Shown piece after piece: positions 15,801 through 40,700 of a stretch of DNA of 59,982 nt. A model generated the notes under the pieces. That model was not told where the DNA came from. It was given only the letters and a program-made list of their open reading frames with translations, and ran no database searches. Made by a program: the position numbers and the translations under genes. Position 1 is the first letter of the stretch. Each line of letters opens with the position of its first letter. Source of the DNA: a virus; IMG/VR virus record IMGVR_UViG_3300011114_001028, positions 1 to 59,982 of that record, one strand, 5' to 3'.

Positions 15801-18800
15801 ATTGCTACGACTTCTGTTACTGGAATTGGAAATACAACTCTTCTTCCGTCAACGCTATACGCAGTTAAAATTGATGAAAACACAGTAAAATTTGCAGAGA
15901 CTCCAGAAAAAGCATTAAAACTTAGTCCAGAAGTATTCAAATTATCCTCAGTTGGAGTTGGAAATTCTCATCAATTTGCATCAAATTATAAATCAAATTC
16001 AAAAGTAATTGTATCAATTGACAATATAATTCAAAACCCAGTTGTTTCTACAGCAAAAACAACACATATTACTCAAGATGTAGATAATATAAATTCCACA
16101 TCTATAATCAATTTTAATAGTATTGATGGATTTTATACAAAAGATTTGATTAAAATTGAGAATGAATTTTTACTGATTACTGATATTGGAATTGGAGGTA
16201 CAAATAAAGTTTCATGTAGAAGAGAGTGGTTGGGTAGCGTATCCGCAGCACACTCTACTGGCGCTGCTATTACAAAATATTCAGGAAACTATAATATTGT
16301 AGATGATATAATTTATTTCGTTGAGGCTCCCCATGGTGATGCCTCAAACACTTCAAATGCTCAACAATTTTCATCATTCAATGGAAGAGTATTTTTGAGA
16401 AGTGCTGTTGTTGGAACAGCAAACAGTGCATATTTTGAAAACAATATTTTTGATGATATATCATCACAATTTAATGGAATTAGAAATTCATTTACATTAA
16501 AATCTTCTGGATATGATGTAACCGGTATTGTAAGCACAAATTCAGTATCTGCAGGGATACTGTTAGTTAATAATATATTCCAAAAACCCAAATATCCAGC
16601 AACAGGAATTGGTCAAACTTTTACTTATGAAGTTACACAAAGTTCCGGTATTTCAAGTGTAGTTTTTAGTGGTAATCCTGTTGGATTAACAACTAATAAT
16701 ATAACTGGACCAATGAAGTTTGATATTAACAGTGCATCTTTACCTAGAGGTGGAATAATTGTTTCTGTTGGATCAACTCAAGGATTTGGATATCAACCAT
16801 TAGTTTCTGCAGGAGGAACAGTTATTGTTTCTGCGGCAGGAACAATTCAATCAATTTCTATTGGAAATAGTGGATCTGGTTACAGAGCAGGAATTCAAAC
16901 CACAATTACAGTTTCTGTTGCAACTTCAACAGGAAAAATTTCAATTGGAACTGCATCTGCGTATAATGGAAATATTGTTGCAATTGCAATAACAAATCCT
17001 GGAACTGGATATACTTCCACAAATCCCCCAAAAATTACAATTGATGCTCCGTTAAATTATGAAAATATTCCATTAGTATATCATTCATCAAATAGTGGAG
17101 TTGGCACAGAAGCAACTGTAGATATTGTTGTTGGATATGGAAAAAGTGTAATAGAATTTAATTTATCAAATAGTGGATATGGATATTCTGTTGGAAATGT
17201 TTTAACTGTAAATGTTGGTGGATCAACTGGAATACCAACAGACTCTTCAGTTTCATTTAGACCATTTAAACTCACAATAGATGAAGTGTTTTTTGATCAG
17301 TTTAATGCTTGGTATCCAGGACAATTTGTAGTGCTTGATGATTTTGATGGTGAATTTAATGGTTTTAAAAAGATTTTTGCATTAAAGGAAAATGGAGTTT
17401 CTTCAAATTTTCAAGTAACTAGGGGATCACCAATATTTTTGGATCAAAATTTATTAGTTTTTATTAATGATATTTTACAAATTCCAGAAGAATCTTATAT
17501 TTTTAATGGTGGATCATTTATTGAATTTATAGAAGCACCAAAGGTTGGTGACAGTGTTAAAATGTTATTCTTTAAGGGATCCGATGCTGATATCAGAGAA
17601 GTGAATATAATTCCTACAGTTAAAGTTGGAGATAGTTTAAAAATAAAAGATGATCTTCAACAAAGAAGAAATGTTTATACAGAATCTTCTAGAGTTGTAA
17701 CTTTTTTACAAAATATTGATTCAGTATATACCACACAATACAATGGATCTGGAATAACAACAGATACTTCAGTTAAACGAGTTGTAGAATGGTGCAAACA
17801 AAAAAATGATATTATTTTAGATGAAAGAGTTATATCTAAAAGTAGACCAGAATTGCTTGCTAATGTATATCCAACTACAACTATCATTAGATCTGTTGGA
17901 GTTGGGAGCACATCAATTTTTGTGCAAAATACACGACCACTCTTTAATTACATTCCAGAAATTCTCGGAAGTGGTGATCAAAACATTACAATAATTTCAC
18001 AAAATCCAAAATCTGCATGTATTGCAACTTCTATTGTTTCAATAGCAGGGACAATATCTGAAATTATTGTAATAGATGGTGGTCTTGGGTTTAGCACAAC
18101 ACCTTCAATATCAATATCTTCCCCCACATCTGGGGTTACGGCAATAGCAACATGTAGTATAAGTGGAGTTGGCACTATATCACAAATTCAAATTACCACT
18201 GCGGGATCTGGATATACTTTCACCAATCCACCAAAAGTTTTAATAGAATCTGAATCCTTTACACTTGAAACATTGACTGGGGTAAGTTATGAAGGAGATA
18301 GTGGAATAATTACTGGGATAGGTACTACTTCAATTGCAGGAGTTACTACTGGAATAACTTTTGATTTTTACTTACCAACAAATTCTTTATTCAGAGATTC
18401 TTATTATGTTGGAAGTGCTCAAACAATTACTGGAATACAAACTGGATATTATTTTATGGTTTATGATTCTATAATTGGAAATGGAGTAACTTCATTTAAT
18501 GATAATGGGTCTGTTTTGGGAATTGGCACCTCATATTTAAATAATGTATATCAAGCATTTTCAGTAAAAAATATAACATCTAATGCTGTTGGAATTGGAA
18601 GCACTACTGATATTGTAAGAGTTACCGCAAGTGTAAAATCTTACAATGGATTAAGTGGTATTGGAAATAGTCAATATTTTGCAAACTATAGTTGGGGAAG
18701 ATTATATAATTTTAGTAGGTCATCTTCACCAAAACAATTTAATCTCGAAATACTTGACGGTATAAGTGGATTATCTACCGCTCCCCTTGTAATAAGATCT

Positions 18801-18830
18801 ACGCCAATGAGATCACTATATACTTCATAA
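6801..18830 (+). CDS. Giant baseplate structural protein, gp7-position, YHYH domain (4009 aa)
   Basis: A single frame of 4009 residues lies where gp7 sits in T4-like phages (T4 gp7 has about 1030 residues). The N-terminus (ETRTSAKTVVEGQIPIFLQEEYPNFGPFLKQYYES) is typical of the cyanophage proteins in this slot. Residues around 1225-1350 hold a YHYH-type domain, including SPIIGWAYDGNPIYGPYG. Two short modules recur: a G-x-G-Y-x-x-x-P-x-I-x-I beta motif (near residues 710-770, 1040-1140, 3330-3420, 3750-3820), and a module with H-x-F/L-x-x-G-x-x-v-x-Y then YYV-x-x-v-d-x-n-x-I-x-L (near 800, 930, 1670, 1830, 2975). It probably forms or decorates the baseplate wedge. Assignment as a true gp7 homologue is from position. 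Confidence 0.8.
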   Translation: MIETRTSAKTVVEGQIPIFLQEEYPNFGPFLKQYYESQEYFSSPLSIVKNIDQLLKVGTYTSEIINSQHTNVTQFVDLGDTTIYVENTSGWPERFGLLKINDEIVTYTSIGNTFFDGCIRGFSGITTYRYLSAPNQIAFETTGIQTHAVGEKVENLSTLFLNEFFKKLKSQYTPGFENVFFPGDLNQKNFVLQSKDFYATKGTPQANSILFKSNFGVDAETIKPQDYLIKPSSTNFKVLRKYVVEPVTGNPLDLIGNTLFQEYNESLGINTAYGSVSDVESQFFDNKTYYTLGIDFGYDRDLSVFGSLYGNFSIHPKTKLVGLAQSSLIVDSTVGFANSGYLSINNNVLSYQKKTLNQFLNCIGITTEKIGDDIVADYVSYGFSGDNRIEVRISGVLDNLNLPEETNYFEINDTVEIKSIGLIKEKNDHKFNSWIFNTSTKFEASSITYDGSYFVVETYENHQLRLKDNIEFINKIDNTIISGQVQKISSDNKFLVSSNLDSNQTNLYEKYDIRRIVKTISNSVAKNEYTTDVQNVYDLNSDAIVASPSIPSYEIFSTNESKGITLAGFTTTSYLNIPDHDFITGQAIYLTSDSDIIPSKNLFVNKIDSNILQLSSSPSNISDGLFESFSNYLPSTINLSLIPIKNKDRKLDSQKIIRKINTPKLSSAIQTTIPNRRLGILVNGVEILNYKSNDVIYYGGLNKIDVLGGGQDYDVINPPVLEITDSVGVGATGTCAVSGSLKEIQIIDGGFDYLETPTITISGGNGKNATAAAKLKKVKSVVYFNANGISTSSGGFISTSTNIIGFNTEHKFKSGEAVIYNSFNATKIGIGSTSGDTSTQNYLQDNSAYYVSIVDQKTITLHNNSQDAILKINPINITSVGDGNQKFESLLDRKIISSVIVTNPGSEYQNKKRLATVSGINTSSDSIYIKDHDFKSGEFVVYDYVGAPIGGLSTQTNYQIIKLNSDIFRLCSAGIGTTLSQFNYETNQYVDLTSSGSGYHYFNYPQISISVVGNIGVGTTNSYEKYNAVLQPIFRGKISSIQLTDVGSGYGSSNIINYNKQPNIVLNSGKNAEVKPIVVDGKIKSIVVLSQGSGYNSPPTFKFYGDGGYAKLTPVLQDGKLIAVNIINGGVGFTTNKTLIDVIPNGNSVSLRADIQKWTINLFERYKSVFSKTKDDGLLVEGITEELQYVNLYAPRKLREILPSKNIDGSNNYQKSDLIFNNNEILSQNHSPIIGWAYDGNPIYGPYGFERYDGGSIKALKSGYEYRSQSNRPPFSDFPEGFFVEDYVFTNSGDLDVHNGRYCKTPDFPNGTYAYFSTINSEQNGFDSTFDNYRRSIFPYLIGNSYYSELNSYNLLQSSNQNIININNENYIRNTYPYKLDQSHAEYEFLYQSDKIINQNAVIDFTSSGKIEKIGIISEGYNYSVNDELVFDNAFGGGFGASAKISEVSENRILSINSSTINLENVVFNIIDSKGGFEGITTSPHNLKNLDVVNITGLSDQNFSGISGFKTVAVDTNILSLSVGLGTTGVTGITTFIYVYGNVDQSILNANDVLQITNTGVGTEKLLVLNIDKVFSRIRVKREHDNTVGYAYSAATLVELNPRKFTFSSGFSTDRFTSKNSIIYFNPPNSVAIGTVAVGSGTTISTIGMGNSTISKFVKLQSIYLPEHNLITGQKLLYSNGGGTSLGVSTDSTNTFTLSDNSPVYVAKFTDDLIGIATTKIGINSTGGFSGVGSTGYLLYFTSFGNGNRHNFTTQFDLITGKVQKNIATITCNQTHNLQTSDQISLVVNPGITTTVKIKYNAVNRRLVANPLEFNGSGINTTTNVLTLLDHNLSTGDKIIYSSSNSASPLINDQIYYVVKVDNNSIKLASNYYQTTLKSPEVVSIASTGLNHEISTINPPLYAILKNNLKFDLSDSSLSDIDGGSRVQSFDFDIFTDSGLTNKFLTTEKETTFEISKVGIVGVTNNASVTLKITENIPKKLYYQLTPLYGKTYLSKEKSEIIKDTDVVGNNSLSISNSKFNGSYNVSGIGSTTILINLNSFPEKTSYTQLESLLKYSTKSLTATGSISKVKIIYGGYGYKSLPGITSIFSTTGSGGILIPESNSIGKIIKTSIPNFGFEYSSDKSLKPIGQLPNRLFVDQLSSIDSIVVTNGGKNYTVAPGFVTIDTVTNEVIDDVVLNSTVKGNKIVSVSVIRNTNRLYNSPPKIIATNNVNGIGITNISYNSNTKEVTVTLAVGFSTASAFPFSVGSKIFVEGVGIIPNSGNGYNSYNYNYEFFTLIGVTSAIGGSNGSLVYKLDKGSVGPGTFYPSGSYQNQNSAYGRVVPESYLPKFEIKLKRGEFSVGENVLVNNTSVGKITNWNPVNKLLKISESSFNIKENSIILGESSKTFAVVKKKLTSYGDFNVTSSNIPKGISEDNVGKLNTFLQVIPDNDYYQNFSYSIKSPIEYEKWNQNVNKLTHTSGFKKFSDLQIESTPESNLKMSLPTQFDIDTRVDFIEEIDFDCYQNFDFVTETTKTINDSLISDQIIFNNRILLDYTEFVSNRVLKLDDLSSQFDDTPSIFNYTTVGTFDVTQYNSAQFYILIKDVRYYGEKEIIIVNITYDGANAYLTAYGRNETVLDLGDFSFRRNGNFGEVLFYPKKYQYNSYNISNINVNFANSGITGIGTSSLGNTVSFASTSVAITSSITPSANTIVSISTNSYTSGKILISASESTGNVQFGEINFVSNGSNAYYDIFGEVDSGDRSPAFGVGIVGTIGVTTTTGNVLITFTPNPSLTVDVKALSILMSDTTKTGVGSIALHKGELSSHYVSIASSTSPVETTIAGFSSATSDAAHYYLQINDTTNNKIYFSEVILVNDSEYNPQISEYSIVNSHNSLGVVGAAKSTLNTYLTFTPNSNINTQIRVFQKTLQISPKQDSLEVDLNSAIIRSDTIPLFYEGTEISTKKEFNLTHRSSPVFSKIIDGSSLVNVNISGDSIVIPNHFFVTGEKIDYSIASGSTKIGIATTSVTGIGNTTLLPSTLYAVKIDENTVKFAETPEKALKLSPEVFKLSSVGVGNSHQFASNYKSNSKVIVSIDNIIQNPVVSTAKTTHITQDVDNINSTSIINFNSIDGFYTKDLIKIENEFLLITDIGIGGTNKVSCRREWLGSVSAAHSTGAAITKYSGNYNIVDDIIYFVEAPHGDASNTSNAQQFSSFNGRVFLRSAVVGTANSAYFENNIFDDISSQFNGIRNSFTLKSSGYDVTGIVSTNSVSAGILLVNNIFQKPKYPATGIGQTFTYEVTQSSGISSVVFSGNPVGLTTNNITGPMKFDINSASLPRGGIIVSVGSTQGFGYQPLVSAGGTVIVSAAGTIQSISIGNSGSGYRAGIQTTITVSVATSTGKISIGTASAYNGNIVAIAITNPGTGYTSTNPPKITIDAPLNYENIPLVYHSSNSGVGTEATVDIVVGYGKSVIEFNLSNSGYGYSVGNVLTVNVGGSTGIPTDSSVSFRPFKLTIDEVFFDQFNAWYPGQFVVLDDFDGEFNGFKKIFALKENGVSSNFQVTRGSPIFLDQNLLVFINDILQIPEESYIFNGGSFIEFIEAPKVGDSVKMLFFKGSDADIREVNIIPTVKVGDSLKIKDDLQQRRNVYTESSRVVTFLQNIDSVYTTQYNGSGITTDTSVKRVVEWCKQKNDIILDERVISKSRPELLANVYPTTTIIRSVGVGSTSIFVQNTRPLFNYIPEILGSGDQNITIISQNPKSACIATSIVSIAGTISEIIVIDGGLGFSTTPSISISSPTSGVTAIATCSISGVGTISQIQITTAGSGYTFTNPPKVLIESESFTLETLTGVSYEGDSGIITGIGTTSIAGVTTGITFDFYLPTNSLFRDSYYVGSAQTITGIQTGYYFMVYDSIIGNGVTSFNDNGSVLGIGTSYLNNVYQAFSVKNITSNAVGIGSTTDIVRVTASVKSYNGLSGIGNSQYFANYSWGRLYNFSRSSSPKQFNLEILDGISGLSTAPLVIRSTPMRSLYTS

Positions 18831-20428: not shown

Positions 20429-23400
20429 ATGCCCCAAGAAACTAATTTAAACGTAACTCCATATTATGATGATTTCAATGATGAAAAAAACTTTTATCGA
20501 GTTTTATTTAAACCAGGCAATTCTATACAAGCTAGAGAATTAACAACATTACAATCAATACTCCAAAATCAAATTGAAAAATTTGGAAATCATTTTTTTA
20601 AGGAGGGTGCAAGAGTAATTCCTGGTCAAATATCATTCACCTTAGAATATGATTGTATTCAAGTTGAATCTGAATTTTTGGGAATACCATTAAGTTTGTA
20701 CTTAAATTCTTTGTTGGGAATTAAGATACAGGGGTCTACAAGTGGAGTTACAGCAAAAATTTCTAATATATTAACCCAAAGTGAATCGGATAATGGTAAT
20801 ATTACATTATACTTAGAGTATGAAAAATCTTCAAATGATTTTTCAACAAAATCTTTTTCTGATGGTGAAAATTTAATAACTTTATCTAATATAACATTTG
20901 GTCTATCAAATCTCATATCTTCTGGTGAGCAGTTTGCCAAAGCAATAGATCAAAATGCAAGTGCGGTTGGATCTGCATCTTTTATTTCAGAAGGAGTATA
21001 TTTTTTAAGAGGTACTTTTGTAAAAGTTCCTACTCAAACATTAATTTTAGATCAATATTCAAATTCTCCAACTTATAGGGTTGGATTGTATGTAAAAGAA
21101 GAAATTATAACAGCGGATCAGGATGAATCTTTATATGATAATGCAAGAGGATTTTCAAATTATTCAGCTCCAGGAGCAGATAGGTTAAAAATTAGTGCTG
21201 AATTAATTAAAAAAGAAATTGACGATTTTAACGACGAAAGTTTTGTCGAATTGATGAGAATTCAAAATGGAGCTATTGATAAATTTGTCAATAGAACAGA
21301 ATATAGTATTTTTGCTCAAGAATTAGCTAGAAGAACTTTTGATGAATCTGGAAATTACTATGTTGCACCATTTAATTCAGTAGTAAAGGAATCATTAAAC
21401 AGTAGAGAAGGAAATAATGGGATTTATTATGAAAATCAGTTAACACAATCTGGAAAAACTCCATCTGAAGATTTGATGATATATCAAATCTCCCCAGGAA
21501 AGGCATATATTAGTGGATACGAAGTTAATTTGGATGGATCTACTCTTATTGATGTTGCAAAACCAAGAGATAAAGGATCAGTTTCTGGAGAAGGTATTCA
21601 ATTTGATACCGGACCAAAATTTACAGTAACTAATGTTTATGGTCAACCAAGTGTTGGTGTTGGAACTACTGCATATTTAAGTCTTAGAAGTGATAGAATT
21701 GGTGCATCCAAACTTTCTCCTTCTGGAGATGAAATTGGTGTTGCAAGAGCATATGATTTCAGTTTAAGTAGTACAGATTATCTTGGAATAACAACCACAT
21801 ATTCATTAAGAGTTTTTGATTTACAAACATTTACTCAGATTGGATTAAGTACAAATATATCTCTAACTAAACCAATATTAATTCAAGGTAATAGTAGTGG
21901 AGCAAGAGGATATTTAAAATCTTCAGTATCAAACTCTAACATATTAACATTATATGGAGTAGAGGGGCAATTTATAAAAGATGAAGGTGTAAATATTAGT
22001 GGTATTACAACATTTGGACACACAATAAGAAATATTAGAGATTATAAACTATCTGATATCAATTCAATTTACAGTTACAGAAGTTCTGCTTCAAATAATT
22101 GTGGATTTAATGCCGATTTGGTATTAGATAAGTCAATTATTCCACCAGTAACAATTCAAAATAGTGCTGTATCTTCACCAACAATTCCATCTTTCATAAT
22201 TACTCCAGATTCTAATGGATTTAGCACCGTTACATCCACTGCATGTAATTTTATTGGAGTAGCAACTGTTGGAAATATTGTAAGTTACCCAAGAGTAGGA
22301 TTTAATACAATAACTTATAATAAAATTTCAAATATTTCAAATGATGGAAGACAATTAACACTAGTGAGCATCAGCACAGTTTCTGGAATTTGTGATGGTA
22401 GCATCGTTCAAGGAATTAGTACTGTAACGACATCTGATTTTTCAATACGATCTTCAGCAATTAAAAACATTTCAGATCCATCATATACTGTTAGATTAAC
22501 AAAGGGGAATGTTTCAGAAATTGATGTTGAAAATACAGATATTGCTTTGAAAACACAATATTTAATTTCAAGTTTTAGTAATAATATAATTGTCGCAACT
22601 ACACTAACATCTGGATATACTTATCAACCATATACAAACGATAGATATTGTCTTGCGTATAGTGATGGAACAAGTGAACCTTTATCTAGTGATAAATTTA
22701 TATTTTCAAATGGATTTAAAGATTTATCAATTAAAAATTTAACTGTTGCAAGTGGATCAAATGCAACTTTGATTGTTTCAATCAAAAAAGAAAAACCAAA
22801 AGCAAAAACAAAAAATATTTTAAAGGCAAATACTTTAGTTATTAATAAATCTTCAAATTCAGCTTCTGGTGTTGGTAATTCTAGTTTAAATGATGGTTTA
22901 ACATATAGTGCAATTTATGGTACAAGAATTCAAGATAAAGAAATTTCTTTAAATGTGCCAGATGTAAGAAGAATTTTAGCAATATATGAGTCATCATCTA
23001 CATCAGATCCAGTTTTACCAACAATTACATTTGTATCCGGATCACTAACTGGACCAAATCAAGATGCAACTGATGCTATCATTGGTGAAAAAATAATTGG
23101 AGAAACTAGTGGTGCAGTTGCAATTGTAATTGAAAAAACCACAAATACTCTCGGATTTATATATCGAAATGGAAATTTCTTTATTGCTGGTGAAAATATT
23201 ATATTTACTGATTCTGGAATTTTGGGAGTATGCAACTCAAAGACTGATGGAGATAGAAATATAAATGAAAAATATGCTTTAGATTTTGGACAAAGATTAA
23301 ATTTTTATGATTATTCAAGAATTATAAAACTTGATGATAATTTTAATCCAACTAAAAAAATAAAAATTGTATTTCAAAATTATGTTATTGATGCAAGTGA

Positions 23401-26400
23401 TGTTGGAGACATTGTTACAGTTAACAGTTATCCATCAGAAGAATATAAGTATTCTCAAATTTTTAATGAATCCTCAACTTCAGACATAATTGATATTCGA
23501 CCAAGAGTATCAAACTATAGTGCGACATCAGCAATTTCTTCACCATTTGAATTTGAATCTCGAAATTTTACTGCTTCTGGACAATCTTCAAATTATTATA
23601 TCGCACCAAATGAAACTATAACAGTAAGTTTTAGTTATTATTTACCAAGAATTGATAGATTATTCTTAACAAAGGAAGGAAATTTTCAGTTACAAAAAGG
23701 AGTTTCAGCAGACAATCCTTTACCACCAGGACAAGTTGATGGTGGATTAGAAATTGCAACATTTTATTTGCCAGCATTTCTTTATAAAACTTCTGATGTA
23801 AGATTGAATTATGCAAGTCATAAAAGATATAGAATGCAAGATATTTCTAGATTGGAAACTAGAATTTCCAATTTAGAATACTATACAAATTTATCTCTCC
23901 TTGAAACTTCCACCGAATCACTATCGATTAAAACAAATGGTGTAGACAGATTTAAGTGTGGATTTTTTGTAGATAATTTTAAATCACATGCTTCACATTC
24001 AATTGCAAATGTAGATTTTCGTGCAAGTATTGATAAGCAGCAGGGATATTTAAGACCATTGAATTTTACAACAGCAGTTGATTTAATTGTTGGATCAGAA
24101 TCATTAATTGGAATTGCTGCTACTCCAAATTCTTCTGTGGATTTGGGATTCGTGCAAGATTTGCAAAATTCAAACGTTAAAAAGAATGGTAATATTGTAA
24201 CATTAAGTTATACTTCTACACCGTTTGTTAAAAATGAGTTTGCAACTAGGATTGAAAATGTAACACCATTTCTTGTTGTTTTTTACAGTGGAATTATAGA
24301 ATTAAATCCATCATCAGATACTTGGGTTGATACAACAACTGTTGCTGCAAATCGAGTAAATATTGAAGGTGATTATAAATCTACAATACAACAACTTCAA
24401 GTTGATGAAAGAACTGGTTGGAGTGAAACAGATTGGGGAGCTTGGCAAACCGATTGGGTTGGAACAGTAGTTCAAGATAATGTTAGTCAGTCTATGGTTC
24501 AAGTAAGCACAGAATTTAGTGATACTTTTTCAAGAGCTGGACAATCTGGTTGGTTAACAGATTCTGTTGCTGCAAGAGGAGGACCACCTCCAGATTGGGC
24601 AGCAGGTGATCTTAGAGGACAAAGGGGATTTTGGGAATTTGAAGTAGAGCAAAAAGGTACGGTAACTTCAGATCGTACAACAATTTCAAATGAAAGAACT
24701 ACAACAACTAGTGCAAAACAATCTAGAACTGGTGTTGCTTGGAATGTAAGTGAAAGAGTTGATACGGCAAATCTCGGAGAAAGAGTAGTCAATACCGATA
24801 TTATTCGTTTTATGAGATCTAGAAATGTTGAATTCATTTCTAGGAAATTAAAGCCTAGAACGAGAATGTATGCATTTTTTGATAGGGTAAATGTCACAAG
24901 TTATTGCTTTCCAAAACTTGTAGAAATTCGTATGACAACCGGAACATTTCAGGTTGGAGAAACTGTTAATGGAAGAATATCTTCATCTTCTGGCACAAGA
25001 ATTGGAATAACTCCAGAAATATCATTTAGAGTTGCTACATCAAACCACAAATATGGTCCTTACAATTCTGCAACAGATGTTTATACAATTAATCCGTATG
25101 ATGATACACAAACTCTTTCTTCAACATATTCATCTACTTCTAGTATTTTAAATGTTGATACATCAAGTTTACAGAATATAGTTACTGGTGGATTTTCTGG
25201 TAGAATTGTATCTGGAATGACTTTAAGTGGGCAAACTAGTGGTGCTCAAGCAGTTGTAACTAATGTAAGACTTGTTTCTGATAATATTGGCACATTAATT
25301 GGATCTTTCTTTATCCCAGACGGAAATATAAGTCCAAATCCAAAATTTGAAACAGGGAATAAAACTTTTAGATTGACAACTAGTGATACAGATTCTCAAG
25401 TTGCCAATATTATAACCACTAGTGCTCAAGAAAGTTTCTTTGCATCTGGAGTTCTTCAAACAAAACAAGATACAGTTCTTGGCATAAGAAATGCTAATGT
25501 AAGAAAAGAACCAAAAGTAGATACACCAAGAACTATCAGTAGTACAAATAATGACGGTGGAGGAGTAATAGCAACCTTAGATGTTAACCAAAGAATTAAT
25601 GTTACAGGAGAACAAATAACTTCCTCCGTTTATAGGGATCCTTTAGCACAATCCTTTATTGTAAGTGAACAAAATGGTGTATATGCAACCAAATTAGATT
25701 TATATTTTCAAGCAAAAGATGATACTTTGCCAGTTATTGTGCAATTACGATCTATTGAAAGTGGATTACCCACTACAAAAGTATTACCGTTTTCAGAAGT
25801 TGAAGTGCTTCCATCACAAATTGCAATTTCAACTACCGGACAAGTTGGAACATCGGTAACATTTAAAGCTCCAGTTTATCTTGAAAATACAAAAGAATAT
25901 GCAATTGTATTACTTTCAGATTCTACAAATTACACTGTTTGGATTTCTAGAATGGGAGAAGAAGATGTAACTACTGTAAATCTTCCAGAATCTGCTAAGA
26001 AAATTGTTTCAAATCAACCATATCTTGGATCTCTCTTTAAATCTCAAAATGGAAGCACTTGGGAACCAAGTGGTTATGAAGATTTAAAATTCATACTCTA
26101 TAAAGCTCAATATACAACCACACCGGGCACTGTGACCTTCTACAACCCATCAGAAGGAATTTCTAATGGTACTTTATGCAATTTACCTAAAGACGCTGTG
26201 CAGTCATTCTCTAAGAGAATTACGATTGGTGTATGCACAAATATTAGTAACTATGCTGGTATTATTCCTGGAGTAAGTATTGGAATTACCGATATGAGTG
26301 TAAGTGGTAAATTGATCGGTGTTGGTGGATCAGTATCACAATCTGTCGGAGCTGCACTTTCTACTGTTAGTGCTGGTATTGGGTATACAACTTTTGGTGC

Positions 26401-28114
26401 TACGGGAATTTCTCTAGACACAATTACTGGTGAAGGATATGGATTGACAGCAGATATATATTTTGTCAACAATTCTTTAGATACGACAAGTTCTGGAATT
26501 GTTACAGTTACTAATGGTGGATTTGGATATAGAGTTGGTGATATTGTGGGAATCCCAAGTTCAATTTTATTTGGAAATGGTGCAACTTTAAAAGTACAAA
26601 CTTTGGGATCAGTAAATACTCTATTTTTGGACCAAATTCAAGGAAATTTTGATTCAAGCATTGCGATTGGAAAAAGATTAACCTATCAATCTACAGCAAT
26701 TGCTGGAGTTTCAAGTTTTGTTGGATTGGCAACAGTTTCATCAATTTTAGAAAATACAACATACGATGGACTTCACCTTAAAATTAAGCATAGAAATCAT
26801 GGAATGAATCAAACAAATAATTTGGTAAAAATTAGTGGTGTTTTAAGTGATGTTTTACCAACTACTTTGTCTGCAGATTATTTGAATACATCAACAAATT
26901 CAATTTCTGTTGTTTCTTCTTCTAATTTTTCTACTTTTGAAAATGTTGGTGTTGCTTCAACAAATCCGGGATATTTACTTGTTGACGATGAAATTATTTC
27001 TTACACTGGAGTTTCTGGAAATACTTTAACTGGAATTTCAAGAGGAATTGATAATAGAAAAATATTCACTCATACTGCTACATCAAATGTTTACAAATAT
27101 GAGTTTAATGGTGTTTCACTGAGAAGAATTAATAAAACGCACGATATGGCATCACCATTGGTTTCAGTTTCAAATCCAATTAGCATTGATAATTATCATA
27201 TAAAAATTAATATGGATGATACTAATTATGGAATTGATAGATCTGGAAATTCAAATGGTATTCCAAATCTTTATTTCAATACAACAAAAACTGCTGGTGC
27301 TAGTGGGATTGTAGCAAGTCAAAATTTAATATTTGAAACTATAACACCAAATGTGCAAATATTTACCCCAAAAGGAACTGGAATTGGATCTAGAATGAGG
27401 TCTATTTCTGGTAGAAGTGTGAGTGGAAATGAAGTTGCATTCTCAGATTTGGGATTTGAAGAAATAGAATTAAATAGATCCAACAATCTAACTTCTACAA
27501 GAATTATTGCATCCAGAGTAAATGAAACAAGCAAACTTACAAGTCTTCCAGGAAATAAATCGTTTACTTTGGCAATTGACTTATTTACTTCTGACACAAA
27601 TGTATCTCCAGTAATAGATCTTGAAAGAGTTAATATGATTCTCACAACAAATCGTATTGATAAACCAATAACGAATTTTTCCACAAATAGATCTATTAAA
27701 CAAATTGGGCAAGATCCACATGCAGCAATTTATGTTTCAAATACAATTTCACTTCAAAATCCATCTACTTCTTTGAAAGTTTTGTTTGGAGCATATCGTC
27801 ATTCTTCTGCAGATATTAGAGTCATGTATAAAACTTATCGTGATGATGGATCAGAAAATCAACAACCATATGTGCCATTTCCCGGATACAATAACTTTGA
27901 TGATGCCGGAAATGTTGTAAATTTTGCTCAGAATGATGGAAATCCCGATAAAATAATTCCACCAAGCGATTCTCTTTCTGATTGGAAAGATTATGAATAT
28001 ACTGAAAACCAAATACCAGAGTTTACAAAATTTTCAATTAAGATAATTATGGCTGGTACGAATCAAGCGTATCCTCCACAAATTAGAGATCTTAGAGCAA
28101 TTGCTTTGGCATAA
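20429..28114 (+). CDS. DUF4815-type virion protein (2561 aa)
   Basis: The N-terminus (PYYDDFNDEKNFYRVLFKPGNSIQARELTTLQSIL, then NHFFKEGARVIPGQISF) is the hallmark of the DUF4815 family found in the baseplate/tail region of T4-like cyanophages. It is probably a tail-fibre connector or peripheral baseplate protein in the place of gp9/gp10. LSPGKAYISGYE-like text (here ISPGKAYISGYEVNL) marks the domain's end near residue 350. Later segments carry Gly-rich beta repeats (GGFGYRVGDIVGIP) and a DDEIISYTGVSGNTLTGISRG module also seen in other virion proteins here. The role is inferred from family and synteny. Confidence 0.8.
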   Translation: MPQETNLNVTPYYDDFNDEKNFYRVLFKPGNSIQARELTTLQSILQNQIEKFGNHFFKEGARVIPGQISFTLEYDCIQVESEFLGIPLSLYLNSLLGIKIQGSTSGVTAKISNILTQSESDNGNITLYLEYEKSSNDFSTKSFSDGENLITLSNITFGLSNLISSGEQFAKAIDQNASAVGSASFISEGVYFLRGTFVKVPTQTLILDQYSNSPTYRVGLYVKEEIITADQDESLYDNARGFSNYSAPGADRLKISAELIKKEIDDFNDESFVELMRIQNGAIDKFVNRTEYSIFAQELARRTFDESGNYYVAPFNSVVKESLNSREGNNGIYYENQLTQSGKTPSEDLMIYQISPGKAYISGYEVNLDGSTLIDVAKPRDKGSVSGEGIQFDTGPKFTVTNVYGQPSVGVGTTAYLSLRSDRIGASKLSPSGDEIGVARAYDFSLSSTDYLGITTTYSLRVFDLQTFTQIGLSTNISLTKPILIQGNSSGARGYLKSSVSNSNILTLYGVEGQFIKDEGVNISGITTFGHTIRNIRDYKLSDINSIYSYRSSASNNCGFNADLVLDKSIIPPVTIQNSAVSSPTIPSFIITPDSNGFSTVTSTACNFIGVATVGNIVSYPRVGFNTITYNKISNISNDGRQLTLVSISTVSGICDGSIVQGISTVTTSDFSIRSSAIKNISDPSYTVRLTKGNVSEIDVENTDIALKTQYLISSFSNNIIVATTLTSGYTYQPYTNDRYCLAYSDGTSEPLSSDKFIFSNGFKDLSIKNLTVASGSNATLIVSIKKEKPKAKTKNILKANTLVINKSSNSASGVGNSSLNDGLTYSAIYGTRIQDKEISLNVPDVRRILAIYESSSTSDPVLPTITFVSGSLTGPNQDATDAIIGEKIIGETSGAVAIVIEKTTNTLGFIYRNGNFFIAGENIIFTDSGILGVCNSKTDGDRNINEKYALDFGQRLNFYDYSRIIKLDDNFNPTKKIKIVFQNYVIDASDVGDIVTVNSYPSEEYKYSQIFNESSTSDIIDIRPRVSNYSATSAISSPFEFESRNFTASGQSSNYYIAPNETITVSFSYYLPRIDRLFLTKEGNFQLQKGVSADNPLPPGQVDGGLEIATFYLPAFLYKTSDVRLNYASHKRYRMQDISRLETRISNLEYYTNLSLLETSTESLSIKTNGVDRFKCGFFVDNFKSHASHSIANVDFRASIDKQQGYLRPLNFTTAVDLIVGSESLIGIAATPNSSVDLGFVQDLQNSNVKKNGNIVTLSYTSTPFVKNEFATRIENVTPFLVVFYSGIIELNPSSDTWVDTTTVAANRVNIEGDYKSTIQQLQVDERTGWSETDWGAWQTDWVGTVVQDNVSQSMVQVSTEFSDTFSRAGQSGWLTDSVAARGGPPPDWAAGDLRGQRGFWEFEVEQKGTVTSDRTTISNERTTTTSAKQSRTGVAWNVSERVDTANLGERVVNTDIIRFMRSRNVEFISRKLKPRTRMYAFFDRVNVTSYCFPKLVEIRMTTGTFQVGETVNGRISSSSGTRIGITPEISFRVATSNHKYGPYNSATDVYTINPYDDTQTLSSTYSSTSSILNVDTSSLQNIVTGGFSGRIVSGMTLSGQTSGAQAVVTNVRLVSDNIGTLIGSFFIPDGNISPNPKFETGNKTFRLTTSDTDSQVANIITTSAQESFFASGVLQTKQDTVLGIRNANVRKEPKVDTPRTISSTNNDGGGVIATLDVNQRINVTGEQITSSVYRDPLAQSFIVSEQNGVYATKLDLYFQAKDDTLPVIVQLRSIESGLPTTKVLPFSEVEVLPSQIAISTTGQVGTSVTFKAPVYLENTKEYAIVLLSDSTNYTVWISRMGEEDVTTVNLPESAKKIVSNQPYLGSLFKSQNGSTWEPSGYEDLKFILYKAQYTTTPGTVTFYNPSEGISNGTLCNLPKDAVQSFSKRITIGVCTNISNYAGIIPGVSIGITDMSVSGKLIGVGGSVSQSVGAALSTVSAGIGYTTFGATGISLDTITGEGYGLTADIYFVNNSLDTTSSGIVTVTNGGFGYRVGDIVGIPSSILFGNGATLKVQTLGSVNTLFLDQIQGNFDSSIAIGKRLTYQSTAIAGVSSFVGLATVSSILENTTYDGLHLKIKHRNHGMNQTNNLVKISGVLSDVLPTTLSADYLNTSTNSISVVSSSNFSTFENVGVASTNPGYLLVDDEIISYTGVSGNTLTGISRGIDNRKIFTHTATSNVYKYEFNGVSLRRINKTHDMASPLVSVSNPISIDNYHIKINMDDTNYGIDRSGNSNGIPNLYFNTTKTAGASGIVASQNLIFETITPNVQIFTPKGTGIGSRMRSISGRSVSGNEVAFSDLGFEEIELNRSNNLTSTRIIASRVNETSKLTSLPGNKSFTLAIDLFTSDTNVSPVIDLERVNMILTTNRIDKPITNFSTNRSIKQIGQDPHAAIYVSNTISLQNPSTSLKVLFGAYRHSSADIRVMYKTYRDDGSENQQPYVPFPGYNNFDDAGNVVNFAQNDGNPDKIIPPSDSLSDWKDYEYTENQIPEFTKFSIKIIMAGTNQAYPPQIRDLRAIALA

Positions 28115-38044: not shown

Positions 38045-38926
38045 ATGAGTGATAACATTTATCTTGGTAATCCAAATCTAAAAAAAGCAAATACTCCAAT
38101 TGAGTTTACTCAAGAAAATATTGAGGAGTTTATGAAATGTAAAGAAGATCCTGTATATTTTTCAAAAAATTATATTAAAATTGTTTCACTTGACGAAGGA
38201 TTGGTTAATTTTAAACCATATAAATTTCAAGAAAAATTAATTCGAAATTTTCATAATCATAGATTTAATATTTGTAAGATGCCTCGTCAAACGGGGAAAA
38301 GTACTACTGTAGTTTCATATCTTCTTCATTATGCCGTTTTTAATGATAATATTAACATAGCAATTCTTGCAAACAAATCATCTACAGCAAAAGATCTTTT
38401 GGGGAGGTTACAACTTGCATATGAAAATCTTCCAAGATGGATGCAGCAAGGAATTCTTTCTTGGAATAAACAATCATTAGAATTGGAAAACGGATCAAAA
38501 ATTGTTGCTTCATCCACATCAGCATCAGCAGTTCGTGGTGGATCTTATAATATCATATTTTTGGATGAATTTGCTTTTATTCCAAACAATATTGCAGATC
38601 AATTTTTTGCATCTGTATATCCAACAATTTCTTCAGGTAAAAGCACAAAGGTTATTATAGTTTCTACTCCACATGGTATGAATCATTTCTACCGTATGTG
38701 GCATGATGCAGAAAGAAAGCGTAATGAATATGTTCCAGTTGAAGTGCATTGGTCTGAGGTGCCAGGAAGGGATCAGAAATGGAAAGAACAAACAATTGCT
38801 AACACAAGCGAACAACAATTTAAGGTTGAGTTTGAATGTTTGGGAGGTGAAACTAAGATAGAAATACTTGATAGTAAAGGTAATTCTCAAAATATTACTA
38901 TGGAAAAACTCTATCATAGAATGTGA
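38045..38926 (+). CDS. 17: gp17 terminase large subunit, N-terminal ATPase half fused to split-intein N-fragment
   Basis: Residues 1-264 are the terminase ATPase: Walker A MPRQTGKST at residues 79-87 (Lys85), Walker B IIFLDEFAF with Asp174-Glu175, and the coupling motif IIVSTPHGM. The extein ends ...FKVEFE. The next 29 residues, CLGGETKIEI to the stop, are an intein block A with Cys1. The ORF therefore encodes only the motor half and needs protein trans-splicing with the product of 39517-40680 to give a full terminase of about 548 residues (T4 gp17 has 610). The half without its partner lacks the nuclease. Confidence 0.92.
   Translation: MSDNIYLGNPNLKKANTPIEFTQENIEEFMKCKEDPVYFSKNYIKIVSLDEGLVNFKPYKFQEKLIRNFHNHRFNICKMPRQTGKSTTVVSYLLHYAVFNDNINIAILANKSSTAKDLLGRLQLAYENLPRWMQQGILSWNKQSLELENGSKIVASSTSASAVRGGSYNIIFLDEFAFIPNNIADQFFASVYPTISSGKSTKVIIVSTPHGMNHFYRMWHDAERKRNEYVPVEVHWSEVPGRDQKWKEQTIANTSEQQFKVEFECLGGETKIEILDSKGNSQNITMEKLYHRM
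38837..38923 (+). other. Split-intein N-fragment (IntN, 29 aa, block A only)
   Basis: Starting at Cys codon 38837, 29 codons run to the TGA at 38924. The opening CLGGETKIEI is a standard block A, with nucleophile Cys1. The fragment contains no block B, which instead lies in the C-fragment. That position of the break, between block A and block B, marks the atypically split class. AceL-TerL, the described example, has a fragment of about 25 residues. Confidence 0.88.
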
Positions 38927-38937
38927 GTTTTTTGGAT

Positions 38938-38945
38938 TATAAATA
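38938..38945 (+). promoter_or_regulatory. Late promoter element TATAAATA inside the broken terminase
   Basis: This exact late-consensus octamer lies between the IntN stop and the endonuclease ATG (38955). Only 9 nt separate it from the start codon, so the message would be almost leaderless. It may express the endonuclease and the C-terminal terminase half separately from the N-terminal half. Confidence 0.55.
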
Positions 38946-38954
38946 TTAATAAAA

Positions 38955-39524
38955 ATGTATTATATCTACACACTGAAAGATTTAAACAATACTGTCAAAT
39001 ATGTTGGACAAACTAAAGATCCAACTACTAGAAAAAGAAATCATAAAAATAATAAACCTCAACATATTTTTGAAGTTATAGAAGAAACAAATATTATGAA
39101 AGAAGCAAAAAATTTGGAAATTGGTTATATAAAAAAATTTGATACTTATCAAAATGGATGGAATAAATCTACCGGTGGTGAGGGTTTTGATAATTATAAA
39201 AGAAAAGGAATAGGTGGTGTAGATAAAGGAAATATTCCTTGGAATAAAGGTATTAAAAATTGTTTCTCTCAAGAAACAATAGAAAAAATGAAAAAAAATA
39301 GAAAGGGTAGAGTTTTTAGTAGAAAAATTACTAATGATCAAATAATAGAAATACGAAATCTATATGAAATAAAGCCAAATTTGCCATCGGAAGGATTAAT
39401 TATGAAAAATGGAAAAAAAATGTCATATGTTCAAGCATTTTGTAAAGAATATTCCGATAGTTATAATTTAACATCACAAGGACTTAAAAGAATAGTTTTA
39501 AAGGAGTGTTGGAAAAATGTTTAA
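38955..39524 (+). CDS. GIY-YIG homing endonuclease between the terminase halves
   Basis: The 189 residues begin MYYIYTLKDLNNTVKYVGQTKDPTTRKRNHK, with the GIY-YIG core as YIY...YVG and the downstream Arg and Glu (NLEIGYIKKFDTYQNGWNKSTGGEG). The middle has GNIPWNKGIKN and SQETIEKMKKNRKGR, a NUMOD3-like DNA-binding pair. The C-terminal third looks like a helix-turn-helix. It is a free-standing gene inserted between the split-intein halves and presumably targets an uninterrupted terminase gene. Its last 8 nt overlap the start of the terminase C-terminal gene, with AAGGAG at 39501-39506 serving that start. Confidence 0.88.
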   Translation: MYYIYTLKDLNNTVKYVGQTKDPTTRKRNHKNNKPQHIFEVIEETNIMKEAKNLEIGYIKKFDTYQNGWNKSTGGEGFDNYKRKGIGGVDKGNIPWNKGIKNCFSQETIEKMKKNRKGRVFSRKITNDQIIEIRNLYEIKPNLPSEGLIMKNGKKMSYVQAFCKEYSDSYNLTSQGLKRIVLKECWKNV

Positions 39525-39825
39525 ACTTAATAAAGATCTATTAATAAAAACTCCTACTGGATTTAAAACTTTTTCTGGAATCCAGAAAATATATAAACCT
39601 TTCTATCATTGGATAATTTTTGATGACGAAACAGAAATAAAATGCTCAGAAAATCATTCATTTGGTAGTGAAAAAATAAAAGCATCTAATATTAAAGTAG
39701 ATGATTTTCTGCAGGGGAAGAAGGTTGTATATAATGAAATAGTAGAGGAGGAAATATACCTTTACGATTTATTAGATGTTGGAGAAGATAATTTATATTA
39801 TTCAAACAATATAATATCACACAAC
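39517..39825 (+). other. Split-intein C-fragment (IntC, 103 aa)
   Basis: Codons 1-103 carry the block B equivalent IKCSENHSFG (S-x-x-H in place of T-x-x-H), block F-like YLYDLLDVGEDNLYYSNN and block G IISHN, with His102 and Asn103 just before Cys104, the +1 extein nucleophile. There is no embedded endonuclease domain. Together with IntN this gives a mini-intein of 132 residues. Confidence 0.9.
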
Positions 39826-40680
39826 TGTGAATTTTTAGGATCAGTTGATACTTTAATTAGTGTTTCAAAATTAAAAACTTTAATATATGAAGATCCAATT
39901 AAAAGTAATAAAGGTTTATCAGTATACAAAGAACCAACAGAAGACTCTAGTTATTTAATTACCGTTGATGTTGCAAGAGGAATTGGTCAAGATTACTCAG
40001 CATTTATTATTTACGATATATCAAATATTCCATATCAAGTTGTCGCAACATATAAAAATAATGAAATAAAACCAATGCTATTTCCAAATATTATACATGA
40101 ATTAGCAAAATCATATAATATGGCATATATTTTAGCAGAGGTTAATGATATTGGAGATCAAGTTGCTTCAATTTTACATTATGACCTCGAATATGAAAAT
40201 GTTTTAATGTGCTCGATGCGTGGAAGAGCTGGACAAATTGTTGGATCTGGATTTAGTGGAAAAAGATCTCAACTTGGAGTAAGAATGACTAAGGCAGTCA
40301 AAAAACTTGGGTGCTCCAATTTAAAAGCTTTGATTGAGGATGATAAACTTCTTACAAGTGATTATAACATTATCAGTGAATTGACAACATTTATTCAAAA
40401 AAACCAATCATTTGAAGCAGAGGAAGGTTGTAATGATGATTTAGCAATGTGTTTGGTTATCTTTTCTTGGTTAGTTGCACAAGATTATTTCAAAGAAATG
40501 ACTGATAATGACGTTCGTAAAAGAATTTATGAGGAGCAAAAAACTCAAATTGAGCAAGACATGGCTCCATTTGGATTCATTGTTGATGGATTAGATGATA
40601 CTAGTTTTGTAGATCAAGATGGAGATAGATGGCATTTAGATGAATATGGAGATAGTTCTTTCATGTGGGACTATAGTTAA
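39517..40680 (+). CDS. 17: Split-intein C-fragment fused to gp17 terminase C-terminal nuclease half
   Basis: The first 103 residues are the intein C-fragment. The remaining 284, starting Cys104 (CEFLGSVDTLISVSKLK), are the terminase nuclease half. Its acidic triad is visible: Asp in TVDVARGIGQD (codon at 39967), Glu in LAEVNDIGDQ (codon at 40138) and Asp in GCNDDLAMCLV (40435-40440). The ATG at 39517 has AAGGAG 10 nt upstream. The first stretch is homologous, by eye, to the intein part of AceL-TerL (FDD-TEIK, NHSFG, DVG, SHNC). The product is only useful after trans-splicing. Confidence 0.92.
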   Translation: MFKLNKDLLIKTPTGFKTFSGIQKIYKPFYHWIIFDDETEIKCSENHSFGSEKIKASNIKVDDFLQGKKVVYNEIVEEEIYLYDLLDVGEDNLYYSNNIISHNCEFLGSVDTLISVSKLKTLIYEDPIKSNKGLSVYKEPTEDSSYLITVDVARGIGQDYSAFIIYDISNIPYQVVATYKNNEIKPMLFPNIIHELAKSYNMAYILAEVNDIGDQVASILHYDLEYENVLMCSMRGRAGQIVGSGFSGKRSQLGVRMTKAVKKLGCSNLKALIEDDKLLTSDYNIISELTTFIQKNQSFEAEEGCNDDLAMCLVIFSWLVAQDYFKEMTDNDVRKRIYEEQKTQIEQDMAPFGFIVDGLDDTSFVDQDGDRWHLDEYGDSSFMWDYS

Positions 40681-40692
40681 AAACCAGTTAAT

Positions 40693-40700
40693 TATAAATA
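40693..40700 (+). promoter_or_regulatory. Late promoter element TATAAATA (gp18)
   Basis: This exact consensus lies 37 nt before the gp18 ATG, in the 57-nt gap after the terminase stop. A good Shine-Dalgarno (TAGGAG, about 40727) follows. Confidence 0.7.

What the first reader, a model, noticed from the sequence alone, without database searches (positions are those of the whole stretch)
38045..40680. Terminase large subunit broken in two by an atypically split intein with a GIY-YIG endonuclease between the halves
The ATPase half ends in FE followed by CLGGETKIEI, a block A with Cys1, and stops after 29 intein residues. The nuclease half starts with a 103-residue intein fragment ending SHN and continues CEFLGS. 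Walker motifs are only in the first ORF and the nuclease triad only in the second, so neither is a terminase on its own. The break lies between blocks A and B, the rare class known from the metagenomic AceL-TerL intein, and the insertion point (EFE|CEFLG) is, as I recall, the same. The GIY-YIG gene in the gap makes it a complete fractured-gene unit. Related systems are described, but this combination in a whole genomic context, with a GIY-YIG and a late element, looks unusual.
Basis: partly seen in the sequence, partly recalled or inferred. Interest (0 to 1): 0.92.

Follow-up and report, generated by a model that had tools for sequence, protein, structure and literature searches.

The report
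Split packaging enzyme carrying mobile endonuclease
A virus that probably infects marine cyanobacteria makes its DNA-packaging motor protein in two pieces that should stitch themselves together, and the gap holds a "homing" DNA-cutting enzyme whose gene is preceded by a conserved copy of the very DNA site where the whole element sits, probably a built-in off switch; the self-stitching element is of a known family and turns out to be common.

Summary
TerL (gp17) of a T4-like, cyanophage-like virus is encoded by two ORFs: 264 extein residues + 29-residue IntN, and 103-residue IntC + 284 extein residues, with a GIY-YIG gene between them. The intein belongs to a known family: IntC matches the Cat-TerL consensus intein (PDB 6dsl, E=2.5e-50), with the same insertion point (EFE|C). 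It is not rare: 93 IMG/VR stretches encode IntC relatives, 70 loci (39 distinct cassettes) carry the complete module, and cultured Vibrio phages have a related fractured TerL.

New here: (1) The cassette moves as a unit: 63 locus pairs have similar cassettes in diverged TerL genes; none show the reverse. (2) Between the IntN stop and the endonuclease start lies a conserved 19-nt copy of the uninterrupted TerL insertion site, abutting a TATAAATA late-promoter element. It is the best match in the window, ranks first among 3,244 TerL windows in 8 of 8 variants, and occurs in 70/70 loci. This is the layout of the I-TevI operator, so I propose that the endonuclease represses itself and targets the empty TerL site. 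(3) Loci that lost the endonuclease stay split. (4) Some relatives have TerL in three pieces.

Splicing, cleavage and repression are inferred, not shown.

The parts
38045..38836 (+). TerL N-extein (ATPase part, 264 codons; Walker A MPRQTGKS, Walker B IIFLDE), ending KVEFE
   Evidence: ORF; Pfam Terminase_6N 4.1e-20
38837..38926 (+). IntN: 29 codons (Cys1, block A) + stop TGA
   Evidence: aligns to CatN of PDB 6dsl including the EFE extein, E=2.9e-6; Cys1 in 70/70 relatives
38919..38937 (+). Copy of the uninterrupted TerL insertion site (GAATGTGAGTTTTTTGGAT = E C E F F G in another frame), proposed operator; overlaps the IntN stop
   Evidence: best PWM match in the whole window, 27.2 bits, real junction 16.2, next 11.9; rank 1 of 3,244 TerL windows; conserved 70/70
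38938..38945 (+). TATAAATA, T4-type late-promoter-like element in front of the endonuclease gene
   Evidence: invariant in the dereplicated set of 20 cassettes
38955..39524 (+). GIY-YIG homing endonuclease gene (189 aa): catalytic domain 1-67, flexible linker, C-terminal helical (probable DNA-binding) domain 127-186
   Evidence: Pfam PF01541, PHROG homing endonuclease 8.5e-13, AlphaFold model matches the I-TevI catalytic domain 1ln0, prob 1.00; dN/dS 0.17
39500..39506 (+). Shine-Dalgarno-like AAAGGAG for the IntC ORF, inside the endonuclease gene
   Evidence: sequence; mostly conserved in relatives
39517..39825 (+). IntC: 103 codons (block B with CSENH, blocks F/G ending SHN); overlaps the endonuclease gene by 8 nt
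   Evidence: matches CatC of PDB 6dsl, E=2.5e-50; SHN 70/70; dN/dS 0.083
39826..40680 (+). TerL C-extein (RNase H-like nuclease part, 284 codons; Cys+1) + stop
   Evidence: Pfam Terminase_6C 9.2e-15; matches T4 gp17 structures 3cpe/3ezk
40693..40700 (+). TATAAATA late-promoter-like element before the tail sheath gene (gp18, 40738)
   Evidence: no site copy upstream of it

Best explanation
A mobile, self-effacing homing cassette in the terminase gene. (1) TerL-N:IntN and IntC:TerL-C are made as separate proteins; the 29-residue IntN docks into the 103-residue IntC and the pair trans-splices, ligating KVEFE to CEFLGS into a 548-residue gp17 (inferred; about 95% likely). (2) The GIY-YIG enzyme binds the uninterrupted EFE|CEFLG site of cassette-free TerL genes and cuts near it, so repair copies the IntN-endonuclease-IntC block into the empty allele (inferred from strong comparative evidence; about 85%). 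The cassette splits the site and so protects its own genome. (3) The gap carries a copy of the binding half of that site next to the endonuclease's late promoter; the enzyme binds it and represses its own transcription, as I-TevI does in T4. Sequence upstream of position -3 is not copied, so if the cleavage position lies there, as for I-TevI, the operator should not be cut (inferred; about 60%). (4) The TerL nuclease half is translated from its own ATG with a ribosome-binding site inside the end of the endonuclease gene. An upstream late transcript could therefore express it even when the endonuclease promoter is shut (inferred).
For: Intein: matches to 6dsl over both halves with the same N-extein; Cys1, SHN and Cys+1 invariant in 70/70. 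Homing: cassette synonymous divergence (median pS 0.48-0.52) is below that of the TerL flanks (0.67-0.68), and HEG-IntC divergence correlates 0.92 but HEG-TerL-C only 0.39; 63 pairs have cassette pS <0.25 with TerL pS >0.5 (L012/L026: 0.02 against 0.65) and none the reverse; 79 empty alleles exist at the same site. Endonuclease: catalytic set invariant 70/70, dN/dS 0.17, I-TevI/UvrC-like catalytic fold. Operator: site copy is best in window, rank 1 of 3,244 TerL windows for 8/8 gap variants, 0 of 200,000 random gaps reach its score; near-invariant while the same codons vary in the TerL junctions of the same loci; kept in L010-type loci where the IntN stop lies 6 nt earlier; gone in the endonuclease-less loci. 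The I-TevI operator precedent: 15/20 nt identity to the homing site, overlapping a late promoter (PMC2988022).
Against: No biochemical test. TATAAATA is AT-rich and not enriched in this window (9 found, 10.6 expected), so its promoter role rests on position and conservation. No dip in synonymous divergence next to the insertion point, so no co-conversion tract was detected. Part of the site copy overlaps the IntN stop codon, so part of its conservation could be coding. The Vsr-like endonuclease gap at the Walker A site has no such copy, so this is not a general rule. The 70 loci include contigs fetched twice (39 distinct cassettes).
Confidence: 0.8

Rival explanations
1. The site copy is a relic of how the endonuclease entered the intein (a piece of target site carried along by double-strand-break repair) and has no regulatory role.
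For: The copy begins about where the extein begins and carries the unsplit E|C junction, as expected if it derives from an empty TerL site. In L107 it still matches the empty-site consensus almost perfectly (30.8 bits).
Against: It is nearly invariant across cassettes with median synonymous divergence of about 0.5, while the same codons drift in TerL itself. It is retained where it is not part of the IntN frame (L010 type) and directly abuts the promoter-like element in the whole dereplicated set.
Confidence: 0.3
2. The two TerL halves work as a two-subunit terminase without splicing; the intein pieces are only a dimerisation device.
For: No splice product has been shown here. Split inteins bind each other tightly.
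Against: Splicing residues Cys1, SHN and Cys+1 are invariant in 70/70 loci. Close homologues GOS-TerL, AceL-TerL and Cat-TerL trans-splice in the laboratory (PMC11766414).
Confidence: 0.04
3. The interruption is a self-splicing intron with an intron-encoded GIY-YIG gene, not an intein.
For: GIY-YIG enzymes are common in phage group I introns, and a phage TerL intron is known (ICP1, PMC10448857).
Against: No Rfam family, group I or II introns included, reaches its gathering score anywhere in the window. The inserted coding sequence is an intein with a solved close homologue.
Confidence: 0.01
4. The endonuclease is no longer a homing enzyme but a resident regulator or TerL-locus gene of the phage.
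For: It is strictly linked to the intein: no free-standing close relative appeared in viral contigs or isolate phages.
Against: Near-identical cassettes in diverged TerL backgrounds indicate recent movement. Endonuclease-less cassettes L021 and L032 persist, so it is not required.
Confidence: 0.1

Closest known systems
AceL-TerL / GOS-TerL / Cat-TerL atypically split inteins (PDB 6dsl; PMC11766414)
   Same: Same host gene; same N-extein EFE before residue 1; short IntN (29; published 25, 37 and 30) and about 103-residue IntC; Cys+1; high sequence similarity.
   Different: Natural sequence in a 60-kb genomic context, with the endonuclease gene, promoter-like element and site copy in the gap; Cys1, not Ser1 as in GOS-TerL.
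Fractured genes (split intein + free-standing homing endonuclease gene; Dassa et al. 2009, not held, known by reference)
   Same: Essential phage gene broken by a split intein with an endonuclease ORF between the halves.
   Different: Endonuclease is GIY-YIG (that paper described a new Vsr-like endonuclease family, from memory); atypical split; autoregulatory-looking site copy.
I-TevI of phage T4 (autorepressing GIY-YIG homing endonuclease; PMC2988022)
   Same: Related catalytic fold; GIY-YIG domain, linker and C-terminal domain; late promoter with a homing-site-like operator; the homing site is split by the element.
   Different: Intein-associated, not intron-associated; the match to the site (18 of 19 nt to some empty alleles) is closer than the 15/20 reported for I-TevI; no binding data.
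TerL of Vibrio phages VP-1 (MH363700) and K469 (OZ195916)
   Same: Corresponding insertion site (QEYD|CSFLGS in VP-1, QEME|CSFRGS in K469), atypical split, homologous GIY-YIG.
   Different: IntN and GIY-YIG form one in-frame ORF, without a separate promoter element; VP-1 also has a contiguous intein at Walker A.

Membership tests
AceL/Cat-TerL atypically split intein | Inserted in T4-type TerL after EFE, before Cys+1 | tested here: met
   Junction KVEFE|CEFLGS; 6dsl chain A begins EFE at the same register
AceL/Cat-TerL atypically split intein | IntN of about 25-37 residues containing block A only; IntC of about 100 residues containing blocks B, F and G | tested here: met
   29 + 103 residues; alignment to CatN/CatC
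AceL/Cat-TerL atypically split intein | Catalytic residues: nucleophile 1, block B His, penultimate His-Asn, nucleophile +1 | tested here: met
   Cys1, SHN, Cys+1 in 70/70; His47 invariant in alignment A2
AceL/Cat-TerL atypically split intein | Protein trans-splicing activity | not testable with these tools
   needs co-expression
Fractured gene | Host gene in two ORFs, each with one intein part, and a homing endonuclease ORF between them | tested here: met
Fractured gene | Mobility of the whole block into empty alleles | tested here: met
   63 locus pairs with similar or near-identical cassettes in diverged TerL; empty alleles at the same site; comparative evidence only
GIY-YIG homing endonuclease | GIY-YIG domain with catalytic Tyr/Arg/Glu/Asn | tested here: met
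   Pfam PF01541; Y5, Y16, G18, R26, E55, N70 in 70/70; fold match 1ln0
GIY-YIG homing endonuclease | Site-specific cleavage of the empty allele | not testable with these tools
   inferred only
I-TevI-type autorepressor | Homing-site-like sequence at the endonuclease's own promoter | tested here: met
I-TevI-type autorepressor | Enzyme binds the operator and lowers transcription without cutting it | not testable with these tools
   needs EMSA and reporter assay
Group I/II intron | Conserved ribozyme around the endonuclease gene | tested here: not met
   No Rfam match at gathering threshold in the window

The most novel reading that the evidence does not exclude
A split-intein cassette with a built-in thermostat: the GIY-YIG enzyme recognises the empty TerL site, and a conserved copy of that site next to its own late promoter lets it shut itself off late in infection, when gp17 is needed. 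That would be I-TevI-style autorepression arisen in, or transferred to, a protein-splicing element.
Probability: 0.55. Interest if true: 0.72.

Novelty: new variant of a known kind. Interest (0 to 1): 0.6.

Why it matters
The intein family is a workhorse of protein chemistry, but I found nothing in the held library about how its natural copies live and spread. This work gives complete natural modules, shows from divergence patterns that they spread as a block between phages, pins the likely endonuclease target, and predicts a specific regulatory switch testable with one binding assay. Endonuclease-less but still split copies (L021, L032) bear on whether splitting can be undone. Cultured relatives make homing of a split-intein cassette testable, and three-piece TerL relatives are a natural test of orthogonal tandem trans-splicing.

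Tried and rejected
Intron: no Rfam match. Co-conversion tract next to the insertion: not seen, synonymous divergence is flat up to the junction in cassette loci, as in empty alleles. AlphaFold of the IntC:TerL-C ORF alone was unusable (mean pLDDT 51.6) and was not interpreted. Matching single empty TerL genes to the gap was too noisy because of wobble positions (best hit at the insertion site in 36 of 56); a position-weight matrix over many alleles resolved it. Looking for an equivalent site copy before the Vsr-like endonuclease at the Walker A site gave nothing. A free-standing relative of the endonuclease elsewhere: none at this level. Literature: the primary papers (Thiel 2014, Stevens 2018, Dassa 2009) could not be read (Dassa looked up and not held; the others did not appear in the searches), so whether AceL-TerL was reported with a GIY-YIG gene could not be checked.

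Full report
What is there. Between 38045 and 40680 the terminase large subunit (gp17/TerL) of a T4-like phage is split over two ORFs with a third ORF between them. ORF 1 has 264 TerL residues with the ATPase motifs and ends KVEFE|CLGGETKIEILDSKGNSQNITMEKLYHRM-stop. ORF 2 (38955-39524, 189 aa) is a GIY-YIG protein. ORF 3 (39517-40680) has 103 intein residues ending SHN, then CEFLGS and the rest of the 284-residue nuclease half. Pfam places Terminase_6N only in ORF 1, Terminase_6C only in ORF 3 and GIY-YIG in ORF 2. The joined exteins have 548 residues. ORF 2 and ORF 3 overlap by 8 nt, and a ribosome-binding-site-like AAAGGAG lies 10 nt before the ORF 3 start. Neighbours are a DUF6321 protein, tail sheath gp18, portal gp20, prohead protease, major capsid gp23 and UvsW. 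The closest isolates are Synechococcus and Prochlorococcus myoviruses, with about 77-79% protein identity for TerL-C and the capsid protein, so a cyanobacterial host is likely but not shown.

The intein. IntC matches CatC, the consensus atypically split intein (PDB 6dsl), at E=2.5e-50. IntN with its last extein residues matches CatN at 2.9e-6, and that construct begins with the same EFE. A review describes GOS-TerL, AceL-TerL and the consensus Cat-TerL as active trans-splicing inteins with IntN of 37, 25 and 30 residues (PMC11766414). This is therefore a new natural member of that family. An intron is not supported.

How common it is. One scan of IMG/VR found 93 stretches encoding relatives of IntC, of which 80 loci were kept. 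The full arrangement (TerL-N:IntN, GIY-YIG, IntC:TerL-C, with the 8-nt overlap in nearly all) recurs in 70 complete loci, 39 of them distinct cassettes. Cys1, SHN and Cys+1 and the GIY-YIG catalytic residues are present in 70/70. Cultured Vibrio phages VP-1 and K469 have TerL split at the corresponding site by a related atypical split intein, with IntN fused in frame to a homologous GIY-YIG protein.

Evidence that the block moves. For 70 loci, median synonymous divergence is 0.48-0.52 in IntN, endonuclease and IntC, against 0.67-0.68 in the TerL flanks. Amino-acid-changing divergence of endonuclease and IntC correlates at 0.92, but only 0.39-0.40 with TerL-C. In 63 pairs the cassette differs little (pS <0.25) while TerL is strongly diverged (pS >0.5), for example L012/L026 at 0.02 against 0.65; no pair shows the reverse. 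Some of these pairs repeat the same contig. Empty alleles at exactly this site are plentiful: 79 of the 80 loci fetched. dN/dS is 0.17 for the endonuclease and 0.083 for IntC, so both are under purifying selection. Two loci, L021 and L032, have lost the endonuclease but the gene is still in two ORFs; L021 keeps a remnant like the end of the endonuclease gene (GGAGTGTTCTAAAAGTGTTTAAAC). No co-conversion tract was visible next to the insertion.

A copy of the homing site in the gap. Directly before the endonuclease the window reads AGAATGTGAGTTTTTTGGAT-TATAAATA-TTAATAAAA-ATG. In another frame GAATGTGAGTTTTTTGGA reads E C E F F G, almost the uninterrupted TerL junction E|C E F L G. A weight matrix from 74 distinct empty alleles scores this stretch 27.2 bits (maximum 32), the best of all positions on both strands of the window; the actual TerL junction scores 16.2 and the next unrelated stretch 11.9. 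Sliding matrices over the whole TerL gene (3,244 windows), the insertion site at -3 to +15 is the top match in 8 of 8 gap variants tested (window 27.4 against 10.1 for the best unrelated position). None of 200,000 random gaps reached the score. The pattern is present in 70/70 loci. It varies less than the same codons in the TerL junctions of those loci. It persists in L010-type loci where the IntN stop is 6 nt earlier and is absent from the gap of both endonuclease-less loci. TATAAATA is frequent by chance in this AT-rich window, but its fixed place here, and the lack of a site copy at the other TATAAATA elements, make the pair noteworthy.

What the copy probably does. In T4, I-TevI binds an operator that shares 15 of 20 nt with its homing site and overlaps its late promoter, and thereby represses itself; it hardly cuts the operator because the cleavage motif is missing at the right distance (PMC2988022). 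The layout here is the same in kind: homing-site-like sequence, late-promoter-like element, GIY-YIG gene. Similarity stops just upstream of the insertion point, so only one side of the site is copied. The predicted enzyme has an I-TevI-like catalytic domain (match to 1ln0, probability 1.00, though E-values are only 0.015-0.1), a low-confidence linker and a C-terminal helical domain. I propose that it is a self-repressing homing endonuclease whose target is the empty TerL site. The main rival is that the copy is a relic of the original invasion. A binding assay would decide.

Assessment. Split intein with trans-splicing: about 95% likely. Homing of the whole block by the GIY-YIG enzyme: about 85%. 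Autorepression through the site copy: about 60%. The system is a new variant of a known kind: known intein family, known fractured-gene arrangement, with a regulatory feature for which I found no description in the held library. The primary papers on these inteins could not be read, so prior description of the GIY-YIG gene in this gap cannot be excluded.

Noticed in passing
L036 3782-7215; L070 985-5064; also L068, L097, L098: TerL broken into three pieces by two split inteins: one at Walker A (RQTGK|STT, IntN of about 40 aa, Vsr-like endonuclease (by eye) in the gap) and one at EFE|CEFLG with the GIY-YIG. Functional TerL would need two trans-splicing reactions.
   Followed up: partly
L214, L217, L220 (EFE|C site empty); also L219, L222-L226 (second site not determined): The Walker A split intein of TerL also occurs without the EFE|C cassette, usually with a gap of about 1 kb; in L220 only 35 nt separate the halves, so its endonuclease is apparently lost.
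   Followed up: partly
L027, L031, L039, L041, L043, L066, L072, L073, L077-L079: A contiguous large intein (LAGLIDADG-like by eye, not scanned) at the TerL Walker A site together with the split cassette at EFE|C.
   Followed up: no
L021 1351-1500; L032 4417-4560: Cassettes that lost the endonuclease and the site copy but remain split; in L021 IntN runs on 8 residues and overlaps a GTG start of IntC.
   Followed up: yes
L125 (Escherichia phage G2494), L208, L209, L211: TerL inteins at a third site, Walker B (DE|CAFI); in G2494 the gene is split with an endonuclease-like extension and is annotated only as a misc_feature.
   Followed up: partly
L227-L230: Relatives of the Walker A IntC followed by SHN|SMWLQN or SHN|SLWMQN, apparently in the P-loop of another phage protein (helicase-like).
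   Followed up: no
window 6801-18830 and 20429-28114: Two very large ORFs (4009 and 2561 aa) upstream of the terminase; not annotated here.
   Followed up: no
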